Of a stretch of DNA of 23,337 nt, positions 1-9,862 are shown in pieces (position 1 is the stretch's first letter; each line of letters starts with the position of its first letter). The stretch lies in NCBI GenBank assembly GCA_902782985.1, contig CACZPC010000127.1, forward strand, positions 1-23,337, in the 5' to 3' direction. The translations under genes were made by a program, and so were the position numbers. The stretch comes from Oscillospiraceae bacterium. GTDB lineage: Bacteria; Bacillota; Clostridia; Saccharofermentanales; Saccharofermentanaceae. The notes beneath the pieces are model-generated. The model did not search any database. It worked only from the letters and a program-made list of their open reading frames with translations, and had not been told where the DNA came from.

Positions 1-70
1 ACCATCAGGGACTCGAACCCGGGGCCCACTGATTAAGAGTCAGTTGCTCTACCATCTGAGCTAATGGTGC
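1..70 (-). tRNA. tRNA-Lys (CTT anticodon), 3' end cut by window edge
   Basis: Reading the minus strand from position 70, a tRNA cloverleaf folds: acceptor 5' strand GCACCAT, D stem GCTC/GAGC, anticodon stem ACTGA/TCAGT closing the loop CTCTTAA (anticodon CTT, which reads AAG lysine codons), five-base variable loop, and T loop TTCGAGT. The 3' acceptor strand ATGGT runs to base 1, so the last two pairing bases, the discriminator and any CCA lie outside the window. One oddity: the T stem CCGGG/CCCTG has a C-U mismatch at pair 50-64. A consensus promoter lies directly upstream. Confidence 0.95.
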
Positions 71-3316: not shown

Positions 3317-3937
3317 ATGTATTCATATATCAAGGGAGAGCTTGTTAAGATAACCGACGATATGATCGTCGTGGAGAATAACGGTATAGGATATGAGATC
3401 ATCTGTCCGTTCGCATTATCATCCAAGCTTGGTCATATCGGCACGGACGTGTGTGTATGGCTTTATCAGAGCGTAAGAGAGGATGACATATCGCTTTACG
3501 GCTTCTCCGAGCCGGAGCAGAAGGATATGTTCCTGCTCCTTATCACCGTAAGCGGTATAGGTCCCAAGGTCGCTCATTCCATCTGTTCTCAGTTGTCCCC
3601 CGATAAGTTCGCCCTGGCTGTCATGGGCTCTGATGTCAAAGCTCTGACAGGCGTTAAGGGACTGGGTAAGAAGGGTGCGGAGAGGATCGTTCTGGAGCTT
3701 AAGGACAAGCTTAAGAATATCGGTAATGTATCCGACAGCCTCTCAGCCGCAGGTATAGCTTCCGGTGACGGTATTGCGTCAGTACCTTCTTCGTCACTTG
3801 CAGCTGATGCCGTAGAGGCCTTGATCGTATTGGGATATAAGCAGGCTGATGCGGCTAATGCCGTTTCTTCCGTATATGAGGACGGTATCGATCTGCAATC
3901 GCTTATCAGAGCGTCACTTAAGACACTTGCGAGGTAA
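3317..3937 (+). CDS. ruvA: Holliday junction branch migration subunit RuvA
   Basis: RuvA tetramers clamp the four-way DNA junction and load the RuvB motor. The protein starts MYSYIKGELV, the typical OB-fold opening. It has two helix-hairpin-helix motifs in the middle (VSGIGPKVAHSI and VKGLGKKGAERIVLELKDKL) and a C-terminal domain III (ADAVEALIVLGYKQADAANAV) that contacts RuvB. The 206 residues are normal. Start chosen at ATG 3317 because GAGGAG at 3302-3307 is nine bases upstream; a TTG at 3308 in the same frame is too close to that site. Eight bases separate it from ruvB. Confidence 0.96.
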   Translation: MYSYIKGELVKITDDMIVVENNGIGYEIICPFALSSKLGHIGTDVCVWLYQSVREDDISLYGFSEPEQKDMFLLLITVSGIGPKVAHSICSQLSPDKFALAVMGSDVKALTGVKGLGKKGAERIVLELKDKLKNIGNVSDSLSAAGIASGDGIASVPSSSLAADAVEALIVLGYKQADAANAVSSVYEDGIDLQSLIRASLKTLAR

Positions 3938-7962: not shown

Positions 7963-8760
7963 TCACATGAATATGCTTTCGATCAGGTTGTCCAGTGTCC
8001 TGATGTCCAGCGGATTGCGCGATGTCTCAAAAGTCATAAAAAGGTTCTTTCCGACGATCATGCCGCCGCTGCTGTAAGCATTGATCTTTCTTATGGCGTT
8101 GTTCGCGTAATCGGGATCGTCCATCATTCCGAAGTGTTCGAGATAAATGACCTGCCTGTCGCTAAGCTTAAGTATCGTGAAATCCGGGTAGAAGGTCCTA
8201 CTGTTTATATTGACCGGACACTCATATCTGTAGGGGATACCTGCTGATTTAAGTCGCTCTGCGATCATCTGTTCCGACTTTGACCTTACCCGCTCCCGGT
8301 TTGATGTAATGAAGAACGGATCTGTCTCGAGAAATCCTTTAGGTTCATAGGGTACGTCGAGCCAACGACTGACATATTCGTCATCAGGAAGGTATACGGG
8401 ATCAATGAGTGCTCGACGATGCGGGGAGAGTGTGGGGTAGATGTCTTCCGGTGCGCTGTCAGGGTATCTTTTAATAAAATTCTCTATAGCGGTTCTCTCT
8501 TTTCGAGCACTTGAGACTATTCGCTTTAAATACATGCTTTGTGCTAATTGTCCTGCTTGTTGTACTTTATCAGGAGGAATGCGCTCACCAAAGCTGTTGC
8601 CGGATCTGTCAGCTTTAAAATAATATACCTTGTCCTTATAAGATTTGATCCTGACCGTGCCTTCCGGAAGTTTTCTGAGCTTTGCCTCCGCGGTGCGGAT
8701 CATATTCGTAAGCTGATCGTATCTTATCCTAATGTCGTTTTTGATATTTTTGGAATTCAT
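7963..8760 (-). CDS. PD-(D/E)XK nuclease-like protein of unknown function
   Basis: No named family recognised with certainty. Of 265 residues, the N-terminal 100 are helical and charged (RYDQLTNMIRTAEAKLRKLPEG), followed by a linker rich in Pro and Asp. The C-terminal half resembles PD-(D/E)XK nuclease folds: helix with SE (162-163), GIPYRYECP with E180, YPDF with D193, and YLEHFG with E208, then a helix with K225. The usual lysine after the last acid is replaced (EHF), so activity is uncertain. Such modules occur as stand-alone hypothetical proteins and inside helicases in Clostridia. The AAGGA ribosome-binding site is well placed. It is divergent from the Mrr-type gene at 9392 across a 631-bp repeat-bearing region. 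Confidence 0.65.
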   Translation of the reverse strand: MNSKNIKNDIRIRYDQLTNMIRTAEAKLRKLPEGTVRIKSYKDKVYYFKADRSGNSFGERIPPDKVQQAGQLAQSMYLKRIVSSARKERTAIENFIKRYPDSAPEDIYPTLSPHRRALIDPVYLPDDEYVSRWLDVPYEPKGFLETDPFFITSNRERVRSKSEQMIAERLKSAGIPYRYECPVNINSRTFYPDFTILKLSDRQVIYLEHFGMMDDPDYANNAIRKINAYSSGGMIVGKNLFMTFETSRNPLDIRTLDNLIESIFM

Positions 8761-8940: not shown

Positions 8941-9291
8941 TATGTTCTTTGAACGGTGATCGTTTTCAATTGTTATCGATATTTGTAGTCATGAGAAAAG
9001 AAATTAGATGATGATTCGGTGTTTTTTTCTCAAAGTATCGGAAATCTTCATGTTTGAGAACAGATTTCAATGGTCGTTTTCTCATATCATGTCATTACTT
9101 ATAATGCGAGAAAAATAACGATGGATTTCTTTCACATCGATCTCAATATTATCAACAGGAGAAAAAATCCATGTTGTTTTATTCTCATTAAGTTGTTATC
9201 TATAAGAATGAGAAAAAACAGATGCGTTTTCTTTCTCATAAGCTGCAATTTGATACATAACGAGAAAACCAACTCAGGATCTTCGTGTCCA
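8941..9291. repeat. Array of about six diverged palindromic units, 51-52 bp period
   Basis: Each unit has a left arm GAGAAAA, a variable centre of about 10-16 bp, and a right arm close to TTTTCTCAT. Left arms start at 8993, 9056, 9108, 9159, 9210 and 9262 (steps 63, 52, 51, 51, 52). Right arms end at 9033, 9085, 9137, 9188 and 9239 (steps 52, 52, 51, 51). Units 2 to 5 are 30 bp; unit 1 has about 11 extra bases in its centre; the sixth keeps only the left arm; a degenerate unit may precede at 8941-8970. Linkers are 21-23 bp and partly conserved (TTGTTATCNAT in two). The 51-52 bp step is five helical turns. This is consistent with protein-binding sites or tandem hairpins, not with coding. Confidence 0.75.
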
Positions 9292-9391: not shown

Positions 9392-9862
9392 ATGAACGGA
9401 AGAAATTATGAGAAGGCTGTTGCCAGATATCTGAGAAATCACGGTTATCACAGAGTGCGTGTTACCAAAGGTTCCGGAGATTTCGGTGTTGATGTTCTGG
9501 CTCGCAGATTCGGACACCGATATGCAGTGCAGTGCAAGTATTACTCGCGTCCCGTAGGCGTATCCGCAGTGCAGCAGGTAGTAGCCGGTATGGCTTACTA
9601 TGACTGTGACAGAGGAATCGTAGTAACAAATACCACTTTTACAAGACAGGCAAGGGAATTGGCGGAGATGAACGGGGTGGACCTCATATCGCGAGTAGGA
9701 CCTTATAATGGTTTCTTCAGGTGTTTCTGGCTGATAATGACAACAGCCGCACTTGTCTGTGCGGCTGTCGGTATATACAGATATTATGCTTTGGCTATAG
9801 CTGCCTTAATGCTTATCCTTGGAATCTTTATCCTGTATCTGAGATCTAAAGTCGACAGATGA
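9392..9862 (+). CDS. Mrr-type restriction endonuclease domain fused to two membrane helices
   Basis: The 156-residue protein begins with a compact Mrr-like PD-(D/E)XK domain: NYEKAVARYLRNHGY, then VTKGSGDFGVDVLA with D34, and the QxK catalytic variant at Q47-C48-K49 (YAVQCKYY), followed by VSAVQQVVAGMAYYDCDRGIVVTN. In this family the module cleaves DNA, often methylated. After residue 110 come two hydrophobic segments (about 111-128 and 131-150), so the nuclease would be tethered to the membrane facing the cytoplasm. Membrane-anchored Mrr-like proteins occur in Bacillota, with functions poorly known. The start is firm because the domain begins at residue 4. The gene ends on TGA directly abutting the reverse-complement TGA of the PRPP synthetase gene. 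Confidence 0.85.
   Translation: MNGRNYEKAVARYLRNHGYHRVRVTKGSGDFGVDVLARRFGHRYAVQCKYYSRPVGVSAVQQVVAGMAYYDCDRGIVVTNTTFTRQARELAEMNGVDLISRVGPYNGFFRCFWLIMTTAALVCAAVGIYRYYALAIAALMLILGIFILYLRSKVDR
9743..9768. repeat. Perfect 10-bp GC-rich hairpin inside the Mrr-type gene
   Basis: ACAGCCGCAC (9743-9752) and GTGCGGCTGT (9759-9768) pair perfectly around a 6-base loop. It lies where the nuclease domain gives way to the membrane helices. On the minus strand it is about 95 nt past the PRPP synthetase stop codon and is followed by TGTCATTAT, a poor T-run, so it might end that transcript weakly. There is no room for a terminator between the two abutting stop codons. Confidence 0.5.

What the first reader, a model, noticed from the sequence alone, without database searches (positions are those of the whole stretch)
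8941..9291. Phased array of diverged palindromes between two divergent nuclease-fold genes
At least five units with arms GAGAAAA...TTTTCTCAT recur with a strict 51-52 bp step (left arms 8993, 9056, 9108, 9159, 9210, 9262), while centres and most linker bases have drifted. Arms and spacing are kept, so selection seems to act on them. A five-turn step places each site on the same DNA face, which suits cooperative binding by one protein. Alternatively the units may be tandem RNA hairpins. The neighbours are a PD-(D/E)XK-like gene and a membrane-anchored Mrr-type nuclease, so the array may control them or be their DNA target. I know no described system with this layout.
Basis: partly seen in the sequence, partly recalled or inferred. 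Interest (0 to 1): 0.75.

Follow-up and report, generated by a model that had tools for sequence, protein, structure and literature searches.

The report
Nuclease gene with dispersed palindrome arrays
The repeated palindromes appear to be the private DNA address of the nuclease-like gene beside them, one of a large family in which many genes carry their own, differently spelled array and in which copies of an array can be scattered, without the gene, elsewhere in the genome; this looks like an undescribed kind of gene-plus-repeat system.

Summary
The array is real (five sites at 51-52 bp steps; 0 of 20,000 shuffles) and is one of five dispersed copies in its genome. Its partner is the PD-(D/E)XK-like gene at 7963-8760, not the Mrr gene. 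That gene belongs to a multi-copy family (82 of 83 genus genomes). Of 91 distinct full-length homologues, 57 have a phased inverted-arm array of at least five sites within 700 bp (51 of 73 in the genus, 6 of 18 in other families; controls 5 of 162 windows), mostly with different arms. Steps cluster at 51-53, 61-63 and 83-86 bp, near whole helical turns. Arrays without the gene occur in the window's genome, G016 and G345 (27 of 30). The one sampled genus genome without the gene had none in 400 kb. Arms stay, spacers drift, between gene-less copies (0/70 versus 36/173). Best reading: the protein recognises its arms on double-stranded DNA and its arrays spread in trans, as in RAYT/REPIN but with an unrelated enzyme. 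Binding and mobility are inferred. Eight open-access literature searches listed no earlier description.

The parts
8963..9268 (.). phased inverted-arm array (window copy, one of five in the genome)
   Evidence: arm positions; similar to four other loci of the genome, 70% identity over 9025-9268; shuffle test
8963..8969 (-). likely decayed first right arm (TTTTCAA), 30 bp before 8993; intact TTTTCTC at the matching place of copy C80
   Evidence: sequence; C80
8993..8999 (+). left arm GAGAAAA
9025..9031 (-). right arm TTTTCTC
9056..9062 (+). left arm GAGAACA (same variant in all five copies)
9077..9083 (-). right arm TTTTCTC
9108..9114 (+). left arm GAGAAAA
9129..9135 (-). decayed right arm CTTTCAC (one mismatch to TTTTCTC in each of the other four copies)
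9159..9165 (+). left arm GAGAAAA
9180..9186 (-). right arm TATTCTC
9210..9216 (+). left arm GAGAAAA
9231..9237 (-). right arm CTTTCTC
9262..9268 (+). left arm GAGAAAA, last site
7963..8760 (-). PD-(D/E)XK-like protein gene, 265 aa; the array lies upstream of it. N-terminal helix/beta-hairpin/helix part, C-terminal nuclease-like core
   Evidence: family association; AlphaFold2 mean pLDDT 92.9; fold and family matches; conserved residues
8761..8962 (-). region between array and PD gene start, presumed promoter and leader of the PD gene
   Evidence: position only; inference
9392..9862 (+). Mrr_cat gene: neighbour, not part of the system
   Evidence: present at the same place without PD gene and array in G079 and G001

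Best explanation
A two-part system: a PD-(D/E)XK-fold protein gene and an array of short inverted arms that is specific to that gene. The protein recognises the arms on double-stranded DNA; sites lie about 5, 6 or 8 helical turns apart, so several molecules can bind one face of the helix cooperatively. The nuclease part acts at or near bound arrays and lets whole arrays be copied to other, largely intergenic places in trans, so that one gene serves several gene-less arrays. Shown here: association of gene and array, mostly private arms, near-helical spacing, dispersed gene-less arrays, arms conserved in gene-less copies, conserved acidic residues. Inferred: that this protein is the one that binds the arms, and that its nuclease activity spreads the arrays.
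For: Five similar arrays but one PD match in the window genome. PD family in 82 of 83 genus genomes at E<=0.001, up to 15 matches each, weak and partial ones included. Array of >=5 sites on at least one side in 57 of 91 distinct full-length homologues, 51 of 73 in the genus and 6 of 18 in other families; non-PD control windows 5 of 162; an earlier, stricter detector gave 34 of 60 upstream, 7 of 60 downstream, 1 of 1,200 shuffles (duplicates and partial hits included). Like-arm steps, searched without a period limit, peak at 51-53 (266), 61-63 (38) and 83-86 (48) of 680. Arm similarity follows protein similarity over 57 arrays (Spearman 0.24 whole protein, 0.26 beta-hairpin part, 0.17 nuclease part; 0 or 1 of 300 permutations as high). 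G016: 49 units in 9 places, PD gene in 1 of the 9 fetched stretches. G345: 30 arrays in 1.6 Mb, 3 within 500 bp of a PD interval and 27 at least 14 kb away, against 1 of 4,560 shuffled windows; arm groups of 8, 3 and 3 arrays each include one next to a PD gene. G078, the one of 83 genus genomes without a PD match: 0 arrays in 400 kb. Arms 0/70 versus other positions 36/173 different between two gene-less copies; in five of the nine G016 arrays 1 of 84 arm columns varies versus 36 of 215 others. Relatives have shorter gaps without array at two places. E163, E180, D193 in 91 of 91, H209 in 90 of 91.
Against: No binding, cutting or movement was observed. 34 of 91 homologues have no array of >=5 sites by this test, 12 of 18 in other families (some of those have 83-86 bp steps). 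The lysine of the E-x-K motif is not conserved (position 210 varies), so catalysis may be changed or lost. Arm groups of 9 and 4 arrays in G345 have no PD gene in the 1.6 Mb scanned. About a quarter of the G345 arrays overlap long open frames fully or almost fully (8 of 30 with at least 0.87 covered), so not all are clearly intergenic. In G016, 3 of 10 pairs of copies show no significant difference between arms and rest, and those units were found by exact arms. No target-site duplication or intermediate was found. Arms conserved long after copying suggest a lasting function at each place, which mobility alone does not explain. Arrays with the same arms and spacing exist in Aerococcaceae DSM 111022 and a Clostridia MAG whose genomes gave no PD match.
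Confidence: 0.55

Rival explanations
1. The PD protein binds its arrays in trans as a regulator or DNA-organising factor. Arrays are kept because each is useful where it lies, and were spread by other means (recombination, another transposase). The nuclease core is a domesticated binding module.
For: Arms stay unchanged in gene-less copies while the rest drifts; sites lie near whole helical turns; catalytic lysine position not conserved; the array is more often upstream of its gene than downstream (63 versus 10 of 91 with >=4 sites), as an operator would be.
Against: The four gene-less arrays of the window genome have no common neighbour and lie between genes of different relative orientation; the arm sequence is not shared with relatives; acidic residues and H209 nearly invariant.
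Confidence: 0.25
2. Anti-phage or self/non-self system: the nuclease is held on its own arrays, or arrays mark self DNA, and it attacks DNA when released.
For: The C-terminal domain matches PADLOC candidate-defence proteins PDC-S68 (E 8.2e-26) and proteins annotated as AAA-family ATPases on plasmids; the N-terminal part varies most.
Against: In the upstream kilobase that I read, neighbours look like housekeeping genes rather than defence genes (labels from my reading, not searched). Partner or modification genes were not tested systematically. PDC-S68 is itself only a candidate.
Confidence: 0.08
3. Arrays are ends or relics of an unrelated transposon; the PD gene is a passenger that happens to lie beside some of them.
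For: Arrays occur on both sides of the gene in L130 and L138; arm groups of 9 and 4 in G345 have no PD gene; GCGTGA blocks flank several G016 arrays.
Against: 57 of 91 genes with an array would be a very regular passenger; arms correlate with PD protein sequence; no array in 400 kb of the genome without PD match. Transposase families were not searched for in the array loci.
Confidence: 0.08
4. Tandem RNA hairpins (small RNA or terminator-like).
For: The window array and the C304 array fold better than shuffles as RNA (z -2.63 and -3.65), as inverted repeats would in any case. In one search double changes were commoner than independence predicts (97 versus 42.9 and 102 versus 40.1), about equally for both pairings; unequal change rates along the arm could explain this.
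Against: No Rfam match; 59 of 817 and 72 of 792 changed arm positions compensated; spacing near whole DNA turns.
Confidence: 0.03

Closest known systems
RAYT / REPIN (TnpA-REP 'REPtron') systems
   Same: One enzyme gene with its own palindromes beside it, further copies dispersed in trans, different kinds for different genes, conserved inverted parts, enzyme and palindromes described as co-evolving (passages of PMC3116915; abstract of PMC8266576).
   Different: Enzyme is PD-(D/E)XK-like, not a HUH tyrosine transposase; ordered arrays of about 5 to 20 or more sites are copied instead of REP doublets; spacing near whole helical turns; mostly uncompensated arm changes speak against hairpin recognition.
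PDC-S68 candidate defence proteins (PADLOC) and AAA-ATPase fusions
   Same: Similar C-terminal nuclease-like domain (AAA-family annotation).
   Different: The PDC-S68 profile is about 1,200 aa; the present family is about 265 aa with its own N-terminal part and arrays. Of six partial matches, none had an upstream array and one (L153) had five sites downstream.
Tn7-type transposon ends with several transposase-binding sites (recalled, not looked up)
   Same: Several spaced binding sites for the element's own protein.
   Different: Array mostly on one side of the gene (both sides in L130 and L138); dispersed copies consist of the array alone; no transposase family was found in the PD protein.
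CRISPR arrays
   Same: Regular spacing of short palindromic elements.
   Different: No long near-identical direct repeat in the window array; unit order is copied between loci; repeats are short arms. cas genes were not searched for.

Membership tests
RAYT/REPIN | HUH Y1 tyrosine transposase (IS200/IS605-like) | tested here: not met
   No Pfam or NCBIfam match at all; PADLOC and fold matches are PD-(D/E)XK-like nucleases
RAYT/REPIN | cognate palindromes next to the enzyme gene, one kind per gene | tested here: met
   57 of 91 loci with >=5 sites, mostly distinct arms
RAYT/REPIN | copies dispersed in trans without the gene | tested here: met
   window genome 4 of 5 arrays, G016 8 of 9 fetched stretches (two of these at contig starts), G345 27 of 30
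RAYT/REPIN | recognition of folded single-stranded REP hairpin | tested here: inconclusive
   arm changes mostly uncompensated; no biochemistry
PD-(D/E)XK nuclease superfamily | fold and acidic active-site residues | tested here: met
   AF2 pLDDT 92.9; many of the best fold matches are such endonucleases, none with E<=0.001; E163 and D193 91/91, E208 89 E + 2 D
PD-(D/E)XK nuclease superfamily | lysine of the E-x-K motif | tested here: not met
   position 210 is mostly C, L, F or N; H209 in 90 of 91. Deviations at this place are known in the superfamily (recalled)
PD-(D/E)XK nuclease superfamily | cleavage activity | not testable with these tools
   needs protein
CRISPR | long near-identical direct repeats with unique spacers | tested here: not met
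   (window array and its copies)
Tn7-like or IS element | transposase gene bounded by terminal inverted repeats and target duplication | tested here: inconclusive
   arrays on both sides seen in L130 and L138; no target duplication defined; relatives show shorter gaps without array
Structured RNA (Rfam) | match to a curated family | tested here: not met
   window and seven array loci, gathering threshold

The most novel reading that the evidence does not exclude
A new class of intragenomic element: hypervariable PD-(D/E)XK proteins, each reading its own short arm motif on double-stranded DNA through a variable N-terminal beta-hairpin part, which multiply and maintain helically phased arrays across the chromosome. 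The family would be a natural collection of paired proteins and DNA addresses, with up to 15 gene matches in one genome.
Probability: 0.5. Interest if true: 0.9.

Novelty: categorically new. Interest (0 to 1): 0.82.

Why it matters
If the protein reads its arms, this is a large natural set of short DNA-recognition specificities paired with their targets, and a second, independent origin of the arrangement known from RAYT and REPIN: an enzyme gene with dispersed repeats that are kept for long times. It would show that bacteria keep site networks of several arrays per gene (3 to 9 in the cases counted here), and give a way to ask what such arrays do for cell or element. It also explains a kind of regular intergenic repeat that ordinary repeat finders can miss, as they did in this window, because mainly the arms are conserved.

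Tried and rejected
Mrr as partner: rejected, mrr occurs at the same place without array in G079 and G001. Same arms in other organisms: the pattern scan of genome contigs gave 13 loci, named records of the window's own genome possibly left out; on reading most look like chance or unrelated hairpins. Aerococcaceae DSM 111022 (L050, L053) has true arrays and a Clostridia MAG (L047) two units with the same spacing, but their genomes gave no PD match, so I do not count them as members. Viral contigs: 0 with the array pattern and 9 distant relatives of the nuclease domain (not read further); 3 phage records, the best covering 72% of the protein; 6 plasmid records, best coverage 46%. Coding repeat: frames through the array differ between copies (reading). 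RNA: see rivals. Comparison of the C202 place with relatives was uninformative, because none of them has the same right-hand neighbour. Literature: the listings of searches show no title or abstract start about a PD-(D/E)XK gene with such arrays; two listed nothing at all; only open-access papers are held, and I read passages of one paper and the abstract of another. I suspect a Saccharofermentans-like genus from memory only.

Numbers to read with care. The array detector was changed twice; the counts given are from the last version. Three of the 94 full-length loci repeat others (L126, L129, L170); 91 and 57 are without them. Homologues came from the best-scoring matches, mostly of one genus, and are related to each other. 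Upstream or downstream stretches of L137, L174 and L182 were shorter than 700 bp. Some control loci had been brought in by arm-like patterns, so the 5 of 162 may be too high; they may be real dispersed arrays. The detector allows steps 49-54 and 60-64 only, so arrays with steps 83-86 (for example L135, L138, L143, L148) count as missing there and appear only. The 143 sets include chance sets of six sites, and arrays contribute many steps each. The arm table had columns shifted by one; one search replaces it. Arm groups in G345 were formed by my reading of the listed arms.

Full report
Observation. The array is there. Left arms GAGAAAA or GAGAACA start at 8993, 9056, 9108, 9159, 9210 and 9262; right arms at 9025, 9077, 9180 and 9231, with two decayed ones. 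The first step is 63 bp, the others 51-52. Shuffles of the region never gave a chain of more than two sites (0 of 20,000 reached five).

A dispersed element. A pattern search of the window's own genome (G000, 1.68 Mb in 319 contigs, 73% complete) pointed to further arrays, and a DNA search with one of them found five copies: C304 (the query), C143 (85% identical), C202 (75%), C80 (73%) and the window (70%). None of 58 relatives had a match. A looser arm pattern gave 14 and 17 matches on the two strands of G000; 18 of the 84 other genus genomes had 1-3, and 23 of 84 matched the reversed control pattern. The copies share the order of their individually different centres, so the array was copied as a whole. 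C304 and C202 lie between convergent genes, the window copy between divergent ones, C143 between co-directional ones; C80 lies near a contig end.

Geometry. In all five copies a right arm is followed by a left arm after 30-31 bp, and a left arm by a right arm after 20-21 bp; in the first unit of the window and C80 this second distance is 31-32. The distances are thus near 2, 3 and 5 turns of DNA. Arm positions differ less than the rest in all ten pairs of copies (p 0.0014 or lower; the pairs are not independent). Between the two closest copies, both gene-less, no arm position of 70 differs while 36 of 173 others do.

The partner gene. In G079 and G001 the small gene o122 and mrr are separated by about 110 bp without PD gene or array. 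In the window and in the relative G017 the PD gene and an array-like stretch lie between them. The G017 stretch has other arms (GTTCYCAGAA-like, my reading); it was too irregular for the detector (L081). A search with the PD protein found matches in 82 of 83 genus genomes, up to 15 in one, weak and partial ones included. Reading upstream of 30 of them showed many arrays of the same layout with different arms: TTATCCCAAA, TTCTACTAAA, TTTTACCCCAAA, AGATACAAA and more.

Systematic test. I gathered 94 full-length homologues (91 distinct) from the genus and from other families of the class. An array of at least four phased inverted arms lies within 700 bp upstream in 66 of 94 and downstream in 10 of 94. 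Of six partial matches none had one upstream and one had one downstream; control windows gave 5 of 162. With at least five sites on one side the count is 57 of 91 distinct loci, 51 of 73 in the genus and 6 of 18 in other families. Several of the 12 others in other families show steps of 83-86 bp, which this detector does not allow. An earlier detector gave 34 of 60 upstream, 7 of 60 downstream and 1 of 1,200 shuffles. Without any period limit the steps between like arms peak at 51-53 (266 of 680), 61-63 (38) and 83-86 (48); one array upstream of a G345 gene has about 42. These are near 4, 5, 6 and 8 turns. Arm similarity follows protein similarity: Spearman 0.24 for the whole protein, highest in the beta-hairpin part 31-62 (0.26), 0.24 in 101-150, lower in the nuclease part (0.17), with 0 or 1 of 300 permutations as high. 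This is weak but in the expected direction, and shared ancestry of close paralogues contributes to it.

Dispersal elsewhere. In G016 the pattern of one array gives 49 units in nine places; nine comparison genomes give 0 or 1 each. Only one of the nine fetched stretches holds a PD gene; two of the other eight begin at a contig start, so that one side is unseen. Units recur in the same order in several places. In five of the nine arrays, chosen because they share units, 1 of 84 arm columns varies against 36 of 215 others; 7 of 10 pairs reach p < 0.05. In G345, a one-contig genome of another family, I scanned 1.6 of 1.67 Mb: 30 arrays of at least six sites, against 1 of 4,560 shuffled windows. 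By my reading of the arms they form groups of 9, 8, 4, 3 and 3, plus three single ones. The groups of 8, 3 and 3 each include one array within 404 bp of a PD interval; the other 27 arrays are at least 14 kb from any. A fourth PD gene has a dense array of its own, a fifth, short PD interval none that I saw. The groups of 9 and 4 have no PD gene in the scanned part, which may mean loss of the gene or a different agent. By open frames of at least 100 codons, 9 of the 30 are free of overlap and 8 are covered to 0.87 or more; frames can run through repeats by chance, so location is uncertain. G078, the only one of 83 genus genomes without a PD match, had no array in 400 kb of 1.9 Mb; the G345 rate would predict about 7.5. 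A biased set of 176 kb around other genes in the genus gave seven, one of them a copy already known. The comparison is suggestive only.

Insertion. Between a radical-SAM gene and a thioredoxin-like gene (labels from my reading) the window genome has 531 bp with an array. G017 has 346 bp with a different small array. Nine other genus genomes have 9-133 bp and no array by the scan; in G082 the second gene was not found. No target duplication could be defined, because no close relative with the empty site was available.

The protein. AlphaFold2 gives a confident model (mean pLDDT 92.9, pTM 0.71): helix 3-28, beta-hairpin 35-50, long helix 63-98, and a mixed core from about 149. Foldseek gives no match with E at or below 0.001; among the best are PD-(D/E)XK-type endonucleases (arenavirus L, R2 retrotransposon, OkrAI, MunI). 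A sequence search of solved structures gave nothing below E 0.18. Residues 142-264 match the C-terminus of PADLOC PDC-S68 (E 8.2e-26). Pfam and NCBIfam have no model for it. E163, E180 and D193 are in 91 of 91, position 208 is E in 89 and D in 2, H209 in 90; position 210, where a lysine would be expected, varies. In the samples searched, full-length homologues were seen only in the class (391 genomes; 398 of the phylum); beyond it the hits cover the nuclease domain, often of large proteins, or a short N-terminal part.

Mechanism. The near-helical spacing and the rarity of compensation between arms (59 of 817 and 72 of 792 changed positions) favour recognition of each arm on double-stranded DNA. 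Double changes are commoner than independence predicts, about equally for both ways of pairing arms, which unequal change rates along the arm may explain. The gene-array association and the co-variation make the PD protein the likely reader. Conservation of acidic residues suggests that nuclease chemistry matters. Spread of arrays without the gene needs a trans-acting agent, and the PD protein is the best candidate. That arms remain intact in diverged gene-less copies shows a lasting constraint: either continued mobilisation or conversion, or a host function. I hold array recognition by the PD protein at about 0.75, spread by its nuclease at about 0.5, and the full statement, loosely taken, at 0.55.

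Known systems. RAYT/REPIN is the nearest in behaviour (passages of PMC3116915; abstract and section list of PMC8266576), but the enzyme is unrelated, so this is not a member. Eight literature searches listed no description; these cover open-access papers only, of which I saw listings apart from the two named. I therefore rate it categorically new, while noting that its way of life may parallel a known one.

Noticed in passing
L050 4362-4760, L053 3222-3462 (Aerococcaceae DSM 111022): 51 bp tandem arrays with the TTTTCTC-N23-GAGAAAA-N14 layout at two loci with different inner sequence, in a genome without a PD match: another system with the same geometry, or convergence. The geometry was part of the search pattern.
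   Followed up: partly
L047 1458-1546: Two units TTTTCTCGTAA-N16-TTACGAGAAAA with 51 bp step, just upstream of what looks like the promoter of an ATPase-like gene (reading).
   Followed up: no
upstream of PD genes in several of L090-L109 (for example L096, L102, L109): A second palindrome, GAGACYAGTCTCA followed by AGTCTCA, between array and gene start (reading): possibly a common operator.
   Followed up: no
L116, L121, L122, L123 (G016): GCGTGA/TCACGC blocks flank the TTATCCC arrays in several copies: a second repeat family nested with the first.
   Followed up: partly
L013 about 3480-3600, L014 about 1390-1450: GC-rich repeats with CCTTTCGAGGC next to two of the five arrays.
   Followed up: no
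G345 (L209, L212, L213, L227, L230): Arrays of different arm groups lie next to each other in several places (for example 352188 and 352590; 658982 and 659588), as if permissive gaps collect them.
   Followed up: partly
L276 (G017), gap between radical-SAM gene and thioredoxin-like gene: A different small array (GGACAAA-like arms) sits in the same gap in which the window genome has its own.
   Followed up: partly
L290 1225-1355 (G017) and L293 2477-2610 (G090): Further arrays (TTGGGTGA; CCTGTACA) near the phosphotransacetylase-like gene, the neighbour of the C202 array in the window genome.
   Followed up: no
hits (for example G248, G311, G802): Short frames of about 100 aa, some with an in-frame TGA, match only the N-terminal part of the PD protein: possible stand-alone version of the presumed binding domain.
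   Followed up: no
plasmid records H1-H6: The nuclease domain lies in genes annotated as AAA-family ATPases on plasmids of Rhizobium, Vibrio and others (one record unannotated).
   Followed up: no
L057 1639-1764 (Blautia RGIG513): REP-like hairpins GAGAAAAggggacggttcctTTTTCTC; apparently unrelated to this array (reading).
   Followed up: no
window 1-70 (-): A tRNA cut by the window end (Rfam RF00005), missed by ARAGORN.
   Followed up: no
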